Positions 84-6,092 of a stretch of DNA of 10,376 nucleotides are shown here, piece after piece. The stretch's first letter is position 1. Each line of letters starts with the position of its first letter. This DNA comes from Spirochaetales bacterium (lineage in GTDB: Bacteria > Spirochaetota > Spirochaetia > Treponematales > Rectinemataceae), in contig JADLKI010000017.1 in assembly GCA_015657395.1 (NCBI GenBank), positions 27,107 through 37,482 on the forward strand, written 5' to 3'. The position numbers and the translations under genes are program-made. The notes below the pieces were generated by a model, which saw nothing but the letters and a program-made list of their open reading frames with translations, had not been told where the DNA came from and ran no database searches.

Positions 84-244
84 CATCATCGGAATGAAAA
101 AGATACTCCCGACGTTCGCTTCCCAAAAGTTGCAGCGGCAGAAGAATATCTATGTCTCGGCGGGCAAGAGGGACCTGCAGCTGTACTTTCCTCCGTGGAC
201 CTCATTACTTTCTGCGATATTACTCTGGAGATATAGGCGCGATC
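84..244 (+). pseudogene. Truncated, frameshifted duplicate of the 3' end of ybaK
   Basis: From about position 84 this stretch aligns without gaps to positions 3494-3603 of the intact ybaK in this window. The translation reads IGMKKILPTFASQKL... against IGMKKKFPTFASEKL..., then YVSAGKRDLQLY against YVSAGRRGLQLY. Eighteen bases are identical (tctatgtctcggcgggca). One base has been lost near 193-195. Restoring it gives VDLITFCDI, matching ADLISFCEI of the intact gene. Similarity runs to about 243, where the intact gene also ends. The first ~100 codons are absent, including the essential Lys47 region and most of the GYVRGGCSPIG motif, so no working deacylase can be made. It is a decayed partial gene copy, and the 39-bp repeats begin right after it. 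Confidence 0.85.
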
Positions 245-361
245 AATAATGTCTATTATAATAGGCAAAAGTAAAAAAACATATATTTTATCCATAAAAA
301 TGGATAAAATATTGAAAATAAAATTATTGTCCATTATAATAGACAATATGGAGGTCGATCT
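245..361 (+). repeat. Three imperfect 39-bp tandem repeats, each centred on a palindrome
   Basis: Units are 245-283, 284-322 and 323-361. Each holds a dyad of the form tTrTCyAT-nnnn-ATrGayAA. Dyad 1 is gtctatta/taataggc (251-266), with one mismatched pair. Dyad 2 is a perfect 13-bp inverted repeat at 283-295 and 300-312 around an AAAA loop. Dyad 3 is gtccatta/taatagac (329-344), with one mismatched pair. Dyad centres are at 258.5, 297.5 and 336.5, exactly 39 bp apart. Units 1 and 3 contain TATAAT at the dyad centre (257-262 and 335-340). Because 39 is a multiple of three, both strands read as 13-residue repeats (such as LSIIIDN or LSIKMDK), but I regard these as by-products and not proteins. 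The array ends at the start of the DUF4143 ATPase, so it most likely serves as a regulatory (operator) array for that gene. A mobile repeat or an RNA hairpin array is possible. Confidence 0.85.
312..340 (+). promoter_or_regulatory. Candidate sigma-70 promoter of the DUF4143 ATPase, inside the repeats
   Basis: TTGAAA at 312-317 and a perfect TATAAT at 335-340 are separated by 17 bp. The -10 box occupies the centre of dyad 3 and the -35 box touches the right end of dyad 2, so a protein bound to either dyad would block RNA polymerase. The predicted start near 347 would leave a very short leader, with the ribosome site GGAGG at 350-354 and ATG at 364. AT-rich repeats can mimic promoters by chance. 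Confidence 0.5.
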
Positions 362-363
362 GA

Positions 364-1599
364 ATGGATATTATTTCACGACCACGCTATCTGAACAGAA
401 TCCGTCCGTATATTGGAACAAAAATCATCAAGGCTGTCGTCGGGCAGCGACGAGTTGGAAAGAGTTATGTCCTGTTGCAGATTGCTGAGCTTCTGCGCGT
501 GGAGCATCCTGACTGGTTGATTCTTCATATCGATTTGGAACGGCTTGAATGGCGGCATTTGCAGACTGGCGATGATCTTGTGCGTGAGGTCTCAATGGCA
601 GTCTCATCCAAGATCGAGACAGGTGCGTATATAGCGCAGGCCAAGATAGCGCTTCTCCTTGATGAGGTACAAGAGCTTAAAGGATACGAGACCGCGGTGA
701 GAGGGTTCGCGGCGGACGAACATTTTGATGTCTATATATCAGGTTCAAACGCCGATTTGCTCTCTGGTGACATCGCGACGCTTTTCGCGGGAAGAGCGGT
801 TCGGATTGAGGTACATTCGCTCACGTATGACGAATTCCTGGTCTTCAACAAACTTAAGGACAATGACGCTTCGCTAGGACGCTTTCTACGATATGGAGGC
901 CTGCCATTTATAGCCAACCTCCCCAACGATGACTTGGTATTGAGTGAATATCTGGCGGCGGTGCTCGATTCTGTCGTACTCAAGGATGTCGTACAGAGGC
1001 ATGGCATACGAAGTCCGGCCCTTCTCGAACGAATACTTGAATTCACTGCCGACAATGTGGGCAGCCCGACTTCTGCCCGCAACATATCCAATTATCTCAA
1101 AAATATTCGAGTAGATGCCTCTCCGCAGTCAGTGCTCGATTATCTCGGTTACCTCATGAGGGCCTTTGCGTTAATCCGATGTCCCACCATGGACATCACA
1201 GGTAAGAAAATACTTGAGGGCGTCTCAAAATACTATTTTGAGGATTTGGGTTTAAGATCGGTGGTAAGGGGCAATAGGGATGCAGATATTGGCAAGATTG
1301 TCGAGAATGCGGTCTTCGGGAGACTGGCTGCGGATGGATGGACAGTATCAAGTGGCCGCGTCGGAGATCGTGAGATCGACTTCGTCGTCGAACGCGGAGA
1401 AGATTGCCGGTTCATTCAGGCTGCATACCTTATTCCAGACAGCTCTACGCGCGACAGAGAATTTGGAGGCCTTGTATCTTTGCGTGGTGGCTGGCCACGG
1501 TATGTTATCTCGATGGACCCGCTCGTCCAGGATTGGCAGGGGGTACATCATCTGAAGTTGAGAGATTTCCTGAGGGACGGCTTTGAGAGTGTACGATAG
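364..1599 (+). CDS. AAA-type ATPase with C-terminal DUF4143 domain
   Basis: The product has 411 residues, the usual length for this family. The N-terminal ATPase domain shows Walker A GQRRVGKS (27-34), Walker B ALLLDEVQE (96-104) and the sensor-like stretch ISGSNADLLS (125-134). YGGLP (177-181) is typical of the family. The C-terminal DUF4143 part has the restriction-endonuclease-like fold signature Glu314, EID (337-339) and Gln352-Ala-Ala-Tyr, in which the final catalytic lysine of true PD-(D/E)XK enzymes is not evident. Cellular function of the family is largely unknown; these genes are often accessory and multicopy. The start is set by GGAGG at 350-354, nine bases before the ATG, and an in-frame TGA directly precedes that ATG. 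It is a single gene under the three 39-bp repeats and is flanked by a ybaK remnant on the left and a short orphan tail on the right, so it may have been acquired by recombination. Confidence 0.93.
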   Translation: MDIISRPRYLNRIRPYIGTKIIKAVVGQRRVGKSYVLLQIAELLRVEHPDWLILHIDLERLEWRHLQTGDDLVREVSMAVSSKIETGAYIAQAKIALLLDEVQELKGYETAVRGFAADEHFDVYISGSNADLLSGDIATLFAGRAVRIEVHSLTYDEFLVFNKLKDNDASLGRFLRYGGLPFIANLPNDDLVLSEYLAAVLDSVVLKDVVQRHGIRSPALLERILEFTADNVGSPTSARNISNYLKNIRVDASPQSVLDYLGYLMRAFALIRCPTMDITGKKILEGVSKYYFEDLGLRSVVRGNRDADIGKIVENAVFGRLAADGWTVSSGRVGDREIDFVVERGEDCRFIQAAYLIPDSSTRDREFGGLVSLRGGWPRYVISMDPLVQDWQGVHHLKLRDFLRDGFESVR

Positions 1600-1675: not shown

Positions 1676-1798
1676 ATGACGGAAAGCGAGAGGAAAACAA
1701 GAATTTATGCCCTCTTCGTCGAGGTCCTCATGATCCGCAGCATCGAGACGAAGACGCGCGGGCGCGGCAAGACGTATCAAAAGAATATAAAGGAATAA
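1676..1798 (+). pseudogene. 40-codon ORF: probable remnant sharing the RGxGKTY tail of the gene at the left edge
   Basis: It runs from ATG 1676 (AAAGGA about 10 bases upstream) to TAA 1796-1798, one base before the NUDIX start codon. The last ~20 residues, IETKTRGRGKTYQKN, parallel VESEKRGHGKTYRKD at the left edge of the window, and the two DNA segments are visibly alike. The first half is highly charged and unlike any family I recognise. The best reading is the 3' end of a second copy of that gene, with the rest lost. It could instead be a small real protein, or a leader peptide coupled to the NUDIX gene because stop and start nearly touch. Confidence 0.45.
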
Positions 1799-3185: not shown

Positions 3186-3659
3186 ATGAAAAAGACCAAT
3201 GCCATGAGAATGCTCGATGAGGCGAAGATTTCCTATGAGGTCGCAGAATACGATGTCGATCCCGAGGACCTTTCCGGCCTCCATGTGGCTCAGACCGCCT
3301 CTCTGCCTCCCGGGCAGGTATTCAAGACCATCGTGCTCAAGGGAGATAGAAGCGGCTATCTTGTGGTCTGCCTGCCGGTCGGCGATGAGATCGATCTCAA
3401 AAAGGTCGCCGCGCTTTCCGGGAACAAGTCGGTCGAGCTGATTCACATCTCCGACCTGGAGAAGATCACCGGGTATGTGCGGGGCGGCTGCTCGCCCATC
3501 GGGATGAAGAAGAAGTTTCCGACCTTCGCCTCCGAAAAACTGAAACAGCAGGAAAAAGTCTATGTCTCGGCGGGCAGGAGAGGCTTGCAGCTGTATCTTT
3601 CTTCCGCGGATCTCATCTCGTTCTGCGAAATTTTCCTGGGCGATATCGGTCGCGAGTAG
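3186..3659 (+). CDS. ybaK: YbaK/EbsC-type Cys-tRNA(Pro)/Cys-tRNA deacylase
   Basis: The product has 157 residues, the family norm. YbaK proteins hydrolyse Cys-tRNA(Pro) made in error by prolyl-tRNA synthetase, and act in the cytoplasm. Visible family features are QVFKTIVLKGD with the essential lysine (Lys47), LPVGDEIDLKKVA (63-75) and GYVRGGCSPIGMKK (96-109). No active-site break is seen. A purine-rich GAAGG lies upstream of the ATG. The gene converges with the minus-strand isomerase gene 54 bp away, with no obvious strong terminator between them. A damaged copy of its last third lies at 84-244, so this region has been duplicated in this genome. Confidence 0.95.
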   Translation: MKKTNAMRMLDEAKISYEVAEYDVDPEDLSGLHVAQTASLPPGQVFKTIVLKGDRSGYLVVCLPVGDEIDLKKVAALSGNKSVELIHISDLEKITGYVRGGCSPIGMKKKFPTFASEKLKQQEKVYVSAGRRGLQLYLSSADLISFCEIFLGDIGRE

Positions 3660-5741: not shown

Positions 5742-5770
5742 ATCTTATGGCATAATCCCCGGCTTGTCAA
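5742..5770 (-). promoter_or_regulatory. Candidate promoter of the LacI-isomerase operon
   Basis: Read on the minus strand there is a perfect TTGACA (5770-5765), a 17-bp spacer and TAAGAT (5747-5742), a four-of-six -10 match. Its weakness is geometry. The start would fall around 5735, at or past the GGAG site (5737-5740), giving a nearly leaderless mRNA. A start further upstream, with TAAAAT at 5782-5787 as -10, is an alternative but lacks a good -35. Confidence 0.35.
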
Positions 5771-5778
5771 GAAAAACT

Positions 5779-5796
5779 AATATTTTAGTAAATATT
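5779..5796. promoter_or_regulatory. Candidate operator dyad on the LacI side
   Basis: Perfect inverted repeat aatattt-tagt-aaatatt, 7-bp arms and 4-bp spacer, eight bases upstream of the candidate minus-strand -35. It shares the pattern ATATT..AGTAA.TAT with the reverse complement of the dyad at 6001-6019. It lacks the central CG seen in many LacI-family operators, so assignment to this regulator is inference. Confidence 0.4.
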
Positions 5797-5995
5797 TATA
5801 ACTTTATTTGCTTGATATATGTGCGTGTATAAGGCTAGCCTGTATGGTACAAAAAATGAAATATCTATATATTATAAAAAATACATGGCATTTTTGATTG
5901 GCCTTTGGGTTTCCCAATTGACCCGAATTGTCCACTGGAATGGCTGCAAACACGCCTTTCTGGTGCTGCTTTCGCTGAATTAATGCAAAAATAAG

Positions 5996-6019
5996 TACTT
6001 TGATATTACTTTAATATCA
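5996..6019. promoter_or_regulatory. Candidate operator: 11-bp tandem repeat forming a 19-bp dyad
   Basis: TACTTTGATAT (5996-6006) is followed directly by TACTTTAATAT (6007-6017), a repeat of about one helical turn. The same bases form the inverted repeat TGATATTA-CTT-TAATATCA at 6001-6019. It ends 12 bases before the -35 box of the ABC operon, a position suited to an activator or to a distal operator in a loop. Confidence 0.45.
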
Positions 6020-6031
6020 CTAAAATTTTCC

Positions 6032-6059
6032 TTGACAGCTCAGTCGGCAGTGCTATAAT
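6032..6059 (+). promoter_or_regulatory. Strong sigma-70 promoter of the sugar ABC operon
   Basis: Perfect TTGACA (6032-6037), 16-bp spacer and perfect TATAAT (6054-6059) with the extended -10 TGC directly in front (6051-6053). The expected start is near 6066, leaving a leader of about 27 bases that carries AGGAGG (6082-6087), five bases before the ATG at 6093. A promoter this close to consensus is likely to be held down by a repressor. Confidence 0.85.
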
Positions 6060-6092
6060 TAAGAACGCTATCCTAAATTCAAGGAGGACAGG

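What the first reader, a model, noticed from the sequence alone, without database searches (positions are those of the whole stretch)
245..361. Phased 39-bp palindromic repeat array driving a DUF4143 ATPase
Three tandem units place three dyads of one consensus (tTrTCyAT-n4-ATrGayAA) exactly 39 bp apart, the last with TATAAT at its centre. Such regular spacing in front of an ATPase of unknown function suggests a dedicated regulator binding cooperatively to several operators. It would be an undescribed control circuit if the same repeats mark other DUF4143 genes.
Basis: partly seen in the sequence, partly recalled or inferred. Interest (0 to 1): 0.75.

Follow-up and report, generated by a model that had tools for sequence, protein, structure and literature searches.

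The report
Self-addressed operator arrays of defence-candidate ATPases
A very common bacterial ATPase gene, listed as a candidate phage-defence gene, has a row of mirror-image DNA sites at a fixed 39-40 base spacing in its own promoter, and relatives have their own site sequences that track the DNA-reading part of their own protein, so the protein most likely switches its own gene.

Summary
Dyads at 249-268, 288-307 and 327-346 have centres 39 bp apart; the last holds the -10 box of an 11/12-match promoter. It is one case of an architecture of this protein branch. Promoters of relatives carry dyads 39-40(41) bp apart: 165 of 238 genes exceed all 20 of their own shuffles (75/92, 15/29, 75/117). 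In a like test, 74/92 pass at 38-41 bp, against 11-26/92 at other spacings and 13/102 control genes; 0/27 other DUF4143 genes pass. The letters are private: in seven genomes, 18 of 18 copies of one operator lie in the ATPase's own promoter. No neighbour class spans more than 8 of 114 loci. Across 69 sister pairs, residue 255, at the start of the winged-helix recognition helix, tracks operator change best (r=0.48, p=0.0045); the six best columns all lie in that domain (p=0.001). Three earlier designs were weaker or mixed. Best reading: the ATPase, a PADLOC PDC-S01 phage-defence candidate (E=3e-116), binds and represses its own promoter. Binding, repression and defence are untested.

The parts
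249..268 (.). dyad 1 (distal operator), half-sites ATGTCTATTA / TTGCCTATTA
   Evidence: kept in L030/L035
288..307 (.). dyad 2 (middle operator), 8-bp arms perfect; the symmetry extends to 283-312 (13-bp arms, 4-bp gap)
327..346 (.). dyad 3 (proximal operator), centred on the -10 box
312..317 (+). -35 box TTGAAA, between dyads 2 and 3
   Evidence: 11 of 12 matches with the -10, spacer 17
335..340 (+). -10 box TATAAT inside dyad 3
   Evidence: in relatives the -10 starts 2 bp before the proximal dyad centre in 40 of 92 genes
350..354 (+). Shine-Dalgarno-like GGAGG
364..1599 (+). AAA_14-DUF4143 ATPase, 411 aa; PADLOC PDC-S01
   Evidence: AAA_14 79.2 bits, DUF4143 49.5 bits, both over cut-off; PDLC04787, E=3.2e-116
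442..465 (+). P-loop GQRRVGKS, residues 27-34
   Evidence: invariant positions
1003..1248 (+). winged helix-turn-helix, residues 214-295, inferred DNA reader of the operators
   Evidence: AlphaFold2 model, mean pLDDT 90.7; columns that follow operator change cluster here
1123..1161 (+). recognition helix, residues 254-266; residue Q255 = 1126-1128
1279..1476 (+). PD-(D/E)XK-like C-terminal domain, residues 306-371, without the usual catalytic Lys (motif placed by eye)
   Evidence: the superfamily is named for PDC-S01 in PMC12988326

Best explanation
The three dyads are operators for the gene's own product. The ATPase binds its promoter through its winged helix (residues 214-295), probably as a dimer on each dyad. 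Dimers on sites 39-40 bp apart contact one another across the -35 box and cover the -10 box, so the gene keeps itself low until the protein is called away or changes shape. Genes of this branch have their own operator letters, co-evolved with their own recognition helix, so that many paralogs can coexist without cross-talk. Shown by computation: the array, its geometry, its privacy, and a statistical tie to the protein's wHTH. Inferred: the binding, repression rather than activation, dimer contacts, and release as the trigger.
For: (1) Geometry is a trait of the branch: best spacing is 39-40 bp in 31.9 of 92 family votes against 2.7 of 102 control genes; four-half-site score above 10 shuffles in 74/92 at 38-41 bp against 11-26/92 at six other spacing ranges and 13/102 in controls, about 8-9 expected by chance; second set of 117 genes: votes 40 bp 50.3, 39 bp 14.5, 41 bp 7.0, next 3.8. 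(2) It goes with this kind of protein: 0 of 27 genes picked by best DUF4143 score have it, though 15 of 27 have one significant dyad. (3) Privacy: 18 of 18 operator copies in 7 genomes lie in the own promoter, none elsewhere; 7 further genomes have none; the reversed control pattern gives 3 hits in the 14. The window's operator shows no excess elsewhere in its genome (6 hits per strand, 3 of them this array, against 9 for the reversed control). (4) No common neighbour that could be the regulator: the largest class is 8 of 114 loci, ABC-type ATPases by eye. (5) Covariation: residue 255 is first of 346 columns, permutation p=0.0045; the top six are all wHTH, p=0.001; three overlapping ways of matching again put residue 255 first, p=0.0105-0.031. 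D255 with CGA 15/21 against 2/97; Q255 with CAA/CCA 14/16 against 5/102, in two to three taxonomic groups. (6) The -10 box starts 2 bp before the proximal dyad centre in 40 of 92 genes.
Against: No binding or expression data. Fisher values ignore shared ancestry. Other covariation measures were weaker: on 60 genes the only column above the 95% level of the permutation maximum was residue 72 in the AAA domain, and no wHTH column reached it; in a mutual-information scan the best pair was residue 171 (AAA), with wHTH in 11 of the top 30 pairs, about 6.5 expected; a window scan favoured the wing (280-292) over the recognition helix. The wHTH against operator partial correlation is -0.20 (p=0.098) and the recognition helix alone -0.28 (p=0.020); in one of four matchings the domain-mean test is not significant (p=0.12). 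17 of 92, 14 of 29 and 42 of 117 genes did not pass the shuffle test. In 19 of 92 promoters the best -10 lies 7-9 bp downstream of the proximal centre and in 12 it lies 14 bp upstream; the promoter picks have no shuffle control, so repression by cover is not universal, and some arrays lie wholly upstream of the promoter (by eye). The neighbour survey saw only segments of 80 aa or more within about 1.5 kb; three loci have an HTH-type gene downstream.
Confidence: 0.75

Rival explanations
1. A separate transcription factor encoded elsewhere binds the arrays; the ATPase is only its target.
For: Palindromes over promoters are the usual mark of dimeric repressors; nothing here shows binding by the ATPase itself. 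Three of 114 loci have an HTH-type gene downstream.
Against: It would need a different factor for most genes, each tracking the ATPase's recognition helix. No neighbour class spans more than 8 of 114 loci (segments of 80 aa or more within about 1.5 kb). The tested operators occur nowhere else in their genomes beyond chance. Spacing goes with the kind of ATPase.
Confidence: 0.16
2. The array works in RNA, as hairpins or an attenuator in the 5' leader.
For: Dyads fold as hairpins by nature; L008 has strong inverted repeats upstream of the start codon.
Against: In the window the distal dyads lie upstream of -35 and the proximal one covers -10, so they would not be transcribed whole; the same layout is the commonest one in relatives. 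Strict 39-40 bp spacing between palindromes is a DNA-level constraint. No terminator-like site in 200-420.
Confidence: 0.04
3. The dyads are mobile-element, recombination or iteron-like replication sites, not a control region.
For: The model resembles Orc/Cdc6 initiators as well as STAND proteins; the gene sits beside a broken ybaK copy, as if it had moved.
Against: The sites are on the promoter side, most often in register with the -10 and -35 boxes, and 18 of 18 copies in 7 genomes are there.
Confidence: 0.04

Closest known systems
PDC-S01, PADLOC phage-defence candidate (AAA_14-DUF4143 ATPase)
   Same: The gene product matches profile PDLC04787 over residues 2-405, E=3.2e-116; PDC-S01 is described as an ATPase fused to a PD-(D/E)XK member and as the fourth most common defence system (PMC12988326, passages seen).
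   Different: None of the passages read describes its promoter, operators or regulation; defence by this gene is unproven.
RptR repressor of a phage-defence island (PMC12255303, passages seen)
   Same: Repeated palindromic sites over the -10 box of its own promoter; a dimeric repressor of defence genes.
   Different: Three 9-bp direct repeats with a conserved 6-bp site and a separate repressor; here 20-bp dyads 39-40 bp apart, private letters, and the effector-type ATPase itself as likely binder.
Autoregulated toxin-antitoxin operons and phage repressors (recalled; TA autoregulation is also mentioned in a passage)
   Same: The product binds operators in its own promoter; paralogs keep separate specificities.
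   Different: Here a single 411-aa AAA-type ATPase with a nuclease-like domain; no common partner gene was found.
Archaeal STAND-like ATPases 2qen and 2fna; Orc1/Cdc6
   Different: 15-17% identity; I know of no operator array for 2qen or 2fna (not searched).

Membership tests
Pfam AAA_14 / DUF4143 ATPases | both Pfam domains above curated cut-off | tested here: met
   79.2 bits (cut-off 27) and 49.5 bits (cut-off 28.1)
Pfam AAA_14 / DUF4143 ATPases | Walker A and Walker B residues | tested here: met
   G27, G32, K33, S34, D100, E101 invariant in 48 of 48
PADLOC PDC-S01 | profile match over the whole protein | tested here: met
   PDLC04787 E=3.2e-116, residues 2-405 of 411
PADLOC PDC-S01 | protection against phage | not testable with these tools
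   validation described as pending for most PDCs (PMC12988326)
PD-(D/E)XK nuclease (active) | catalytic E ... D ... (D/E)xK | tested here: not met
   E314 and D339 kept in 138 of 139 each, but the site where E-x-K is expected reads Q352-x-A/C/S/T/V354 in 139 of 139; the motif was placed by eye, so an atypical or differently placed active site is not excluded
PD-(D/E)XK nuclease (active) | fold of the C-terminal domain | tested here: inconclusive
   the structure comparison covered mainly residues 1-309
Autoregulated promoter with private operators | operators overlap the gene's own promoter | tested here: met
   (predicted promoter)
Autoregulated promoter with private operators | operator occurs only at its own gene | tested here: met
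   18 of 18 sites in 7 of 14 genomes searched; own genome
Autoregulated promoter with private operators | specificity follows the gene product's DNA reader | tested here: met
   weaker or mixed
Autoregulated promoter with private operators | product binds and represses | not testable with these tools
   needs EMSA and a reporter

The most novel reading that the evidence does not exclude
PDC-S01 genes are self-addressed immune switches. Each ATPase is both sensor/effector and its own repressor, and private operators give every copy a separate address, so a genome can hold many DUF4143 genes (13-15 hits here, 27 in G237) without cross-repression. An invader that draws the ATPase off its promoter, or changes its nucleotide state, would raise its expression at once. 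The residue 253-255 to half-site rules would be a readable recognition code across phyla.
Probability: 0.33. Interest if true: 0.86.

Novelty: new variant of a known kind. Interest (0 to 1): 0.73.

Why it matters
PDC-S01 is reported as the fourth most common defence-type gene across prokaryotes, with validation pending for most such candidates (PMC12988326, passages), and as the most frequent individual defence locus in a rumen survey (PMC13356809, passages). I found no account of its target, trigger or control in the searches named in the report. If each copy represses itself through a private operator array, the genes come with their own DNA bait and a ready reporter: the array can be used to purify the protein, to find the inducing signal, and to test which phage step releases it. 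It also gives a natural recognition-code data set for a winged helix inside an AAA-type ATPase.

Tried and rejected
Tried without use: NCBIfam gave no family. PDB by sequence gave one chance-level match. The genome-contig scan gave only four loci. Covariation by single columns on 60 genes, by mutual information and by sliding windows gave weak or mixed results, reported above; the sister-pair design was made after these, so its p-values are those of a fourth design, and its four matchings overlap. A simple tandem-repeat reading was rejected. A shared DUF4143 regulon was rejected.

Rows dropped before counts: L041, L097, L098, L099, L104 (match lacks the 5' part), L030 (same locus as L035), L055 and L065 (doubtful start), L107 (too little upstream DNA) (one search left out the first-fetched seven of these); L160; L198; L307 and L330. 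The homologs are the better-scoring hits of capped lists, not all members. Some remaining genes are near-duplicates (for example L057/L059, L083/L085, L076/L078/L080, L089/L096), so counts are not fully independent; covariation sets were cut at 80-85% identity or used each gene in one pair. The scans gave a bonus of 1 to spacings 39 and 40; and the spacing votes did not. In one search, L007, L013 (the window gene) and L014 were left out of the 15 own-genome hits. Control upstream regions have higher G+C (0.455 against 0.358); each was judged against its own shuffles. The 27 genes were picked by best DUF4143 score; I did not test further which branch each belongs to.

Full report
What is there. 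The window lies in a 3.03-Mb genome of 21 contigs. The closest named record found is a Spirochaetaceae MAG (L030). Ahead of the gene at 364-1599 are three dyads with centres exactly 39 bp apart; the last carries the -10 box of a good sigma-70-type promoter (TTGAAA at 312, spacer 17, TATAAT at 335). A three-site score of 113 is beyond all of 300 shuffles (maximum 90) and all of 164 tiles from base 400 on (maximum 74). The dyads are not tandem units: the DNA between them is not repeated.

The geometry is a trait of this protein branch. I fetched homologs from the window's order and phylum. In 92 usable upstream regions the best dyad-pair spacing falls at 39-40 bp in 31.9 votes against 2.7 of 102 control genes; the pair test at 39/40 bp is passed (p<=0.05) by 50 of 92 against 3 of 102. 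With all four half-sites compared, 74 of 92 exceed ten shuffles at 38-41 bp; six other spacing ranges give 11-26 of 92, and controls give 13 of 102 at 38-41 bp (8.4 and 9.3 expected). In a second set of 117 genes the unweighted spacing votes were 50.3 at 40 bp, 14.5 at 39 and 7.0 at 41, with 3.8 at the next value. Above all 20 shuffles were 54 of 69 genes from the window's order and 21 of 48 from the class of the genome behind L031, a MAG labelled Phytoplasma sp., and 15 of 29 from the class of the genome behind L033, an uncultured Prevotellaceae bacterium; of these 29, 10 of the 11 with at least 35% identity to the query pass. Other DUF4143 genes behave differently: of 27 picked by best DUF4143 score, none has the 38-41-bp pair, 15 have one significant dyad, by eye often around the -35 box, and several have their best pair at 32 bp (not tested against shuffles).

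The letters are private. Half-sites read TTGTCCAT, TTTCGA, TTTACGG, TTTGCGG, TTATCAG, TTTCAAAG, TTTTTCTC and others; close relatives share theirs. In the window's genome the consensus has no excess beyond this array. For TTTCGANTATANTCGAAA with up to one mismatch, 14 genomes gave 18 sites in 7 genomes; all 18 lie directly upstream of that genome's own ATPase gene (coordinates compared); the reversed control pattern gave 3 hits in the 14. Those seven genomes were chosen because the array was already known there; the test asks where else the operator occurs, and the answer is nowhere. In G002 the four centres are 40, 40 and 39 bp apart.

Who reads them. Among 114 loci with about 1.5 kb of flank, 321 neighbour clusters are single sequences, the largest class spans 8 loci, the next is 7 loci of DUF4143-like genes, and three loci have an HTH-type gene downstream (segments of 80 aa or more). 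So no common partner regulator travels with the gene at that distance. The protein's own winged helix is the obvious candidate, and the sister-pair test agrees. In 69 pairs, change at residue 255 tracks operator change best of 346 columns (r=0.48, permutation p=0.0045), and the six best columns (255, 295, 285, 254, 253, 269) are all in the winged-helix domain, which holds 75 of the 346 columns (p=0.001). Three other, overlapping ways of matching again give residue 255 first (p=0.0105-0.031), with 4, 4 and 6 of the top six columns in the domain. By tabulation, D255 goes with CGA at half-site positions -6 to -4 in 15 of 21 genes (2 of 97 others), and Q255 with CAA or CCA in 14 of 16 (5 of 102 others); these Fisher values do not correct for ancestry. 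Three earlier designs gave weaker or mixed signals: the only significant column was residue 72 of the AAA domain; the top pair was residue 171; the best windows were the wing of the winged helix. Domain-level partial correlations are modest (wHTH -0.20, p=0.098; recognition helix -0.28, p=0.020). I treat the tie as good but not proof.

How it would work. Of 94 genes whose proximal dyad centre lies between -35 and +3 of the ATG, 92 had a promoter-like pair. In 40 of the 92 the -10 box starts 2 bp before the proximal dyad centre, and the commonest -35 position (35 of 92) is 25 bp before it, between the two dyads; 19 have the -10 7-9 bp downstream and 12 have it 14 bp upstream (no shuffle control). 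A protein dimer on the proximal dyad would block the -10 box, and a contact with the next dimer would enclose the -35. Repression is therefore the likely sign; activation is not excluded for arrays that lie wholly upstream. 39-40 bp is about 3.7-3.8 turns of relaxed B-DNA, so the strict spacing suggests a fixed protein-protein contact rather than exact same-face phasing. Binding, sign and contact are inferred.

What is known. PDC-S01 is described as an ATPase fused to a PD-(D/E)XK-superfamily member, the fourth most common defence system across prokaryotes, with validation pending for most such candidates (PMC12988326, passages), and as the most frequent individual locus in a rumen survey (PMC13356809, passages). 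A DUF4143 gene of Thermus thermophilus, TT_P0211, rose 6.6-fold in the wild type carrying a plasmid compared with the wild type without it, and no such changes were seen without Argonaute (PMC4406477, section 7 read); this hints that such genes are inducible. RptR shows repeated palindromes over the -10 box of a defence-island promoter (PMC12255303, passages). Searches for DUF4143 (1 paper), COG1373 (7 papers, listing only), PF13635/PF13173/AAA_14 (571 papers, 30 listed, those listed unrelated), PDC-S01 (3 papers) and word sets on defence candidates and regulation (listings) showed no report of these operators in that open-licence library; subscription journals are not covered.

Verdict. Its circuit is best read as self-control by a defence-candidate ATPase with a private operator array, a general architecture of this branch.

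Noticed in passing
window's genome C19:67651-83477 (L017, L018): Eight of the genome's 15 DUF4143 hits lie within 16 kb, on both strands, one of them below Pfam's cut-off; genome G237 has 27 hits at E<=1e-10.
   Followed up: partly
L001, L002, L003, L004, L006, L010, L011 (own-genome paralogs): Paralogs of other kinds carry one strong dyad centred 28-69 bp before the ATG (7 of 12 at p<=0.02 against 1 of 45 controls at p<=0.05); several promoters look leaderless by eye, with a -10-like box about 7 bp before the ATG.
   Followed up: partly
L323, L327, L328, L331, L333: In these DUF4143 genes the best-scoring dyad pair is 32-33 bp apart (scores 35-52; not tested against shuffles): perhaps a second geometry.
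   Followed up: no
window 87-192 and 3497-3602: A broken copy of the ybaK/tRNA-edit gene, 76% identical over 106 bp to the intact gene at 3186-3659, ends close to the first dyad.
   Followed up: partly
window 1714-1796: By eye, a shortened copy of the 3' end of the gene upstream of the array (compare L030) lies just downstream of the ATPase gene, as if the ATPase gene had arrived with a local duplication.
   Followed up: no
PMC4406477, Table 1: TT_P0211, a DUF4143 gene of Thermus, rises 6.6-fold in the strain with a plasmid when Argonaute is present.
   Followed up: no
window 5760-6092: AT-rich region with an 11-bp tandem repeat (5996-6021) between a LacI-type regulator gene and a sugar-transporter-like operon; possible LacI-family operators.
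   Followed up: no
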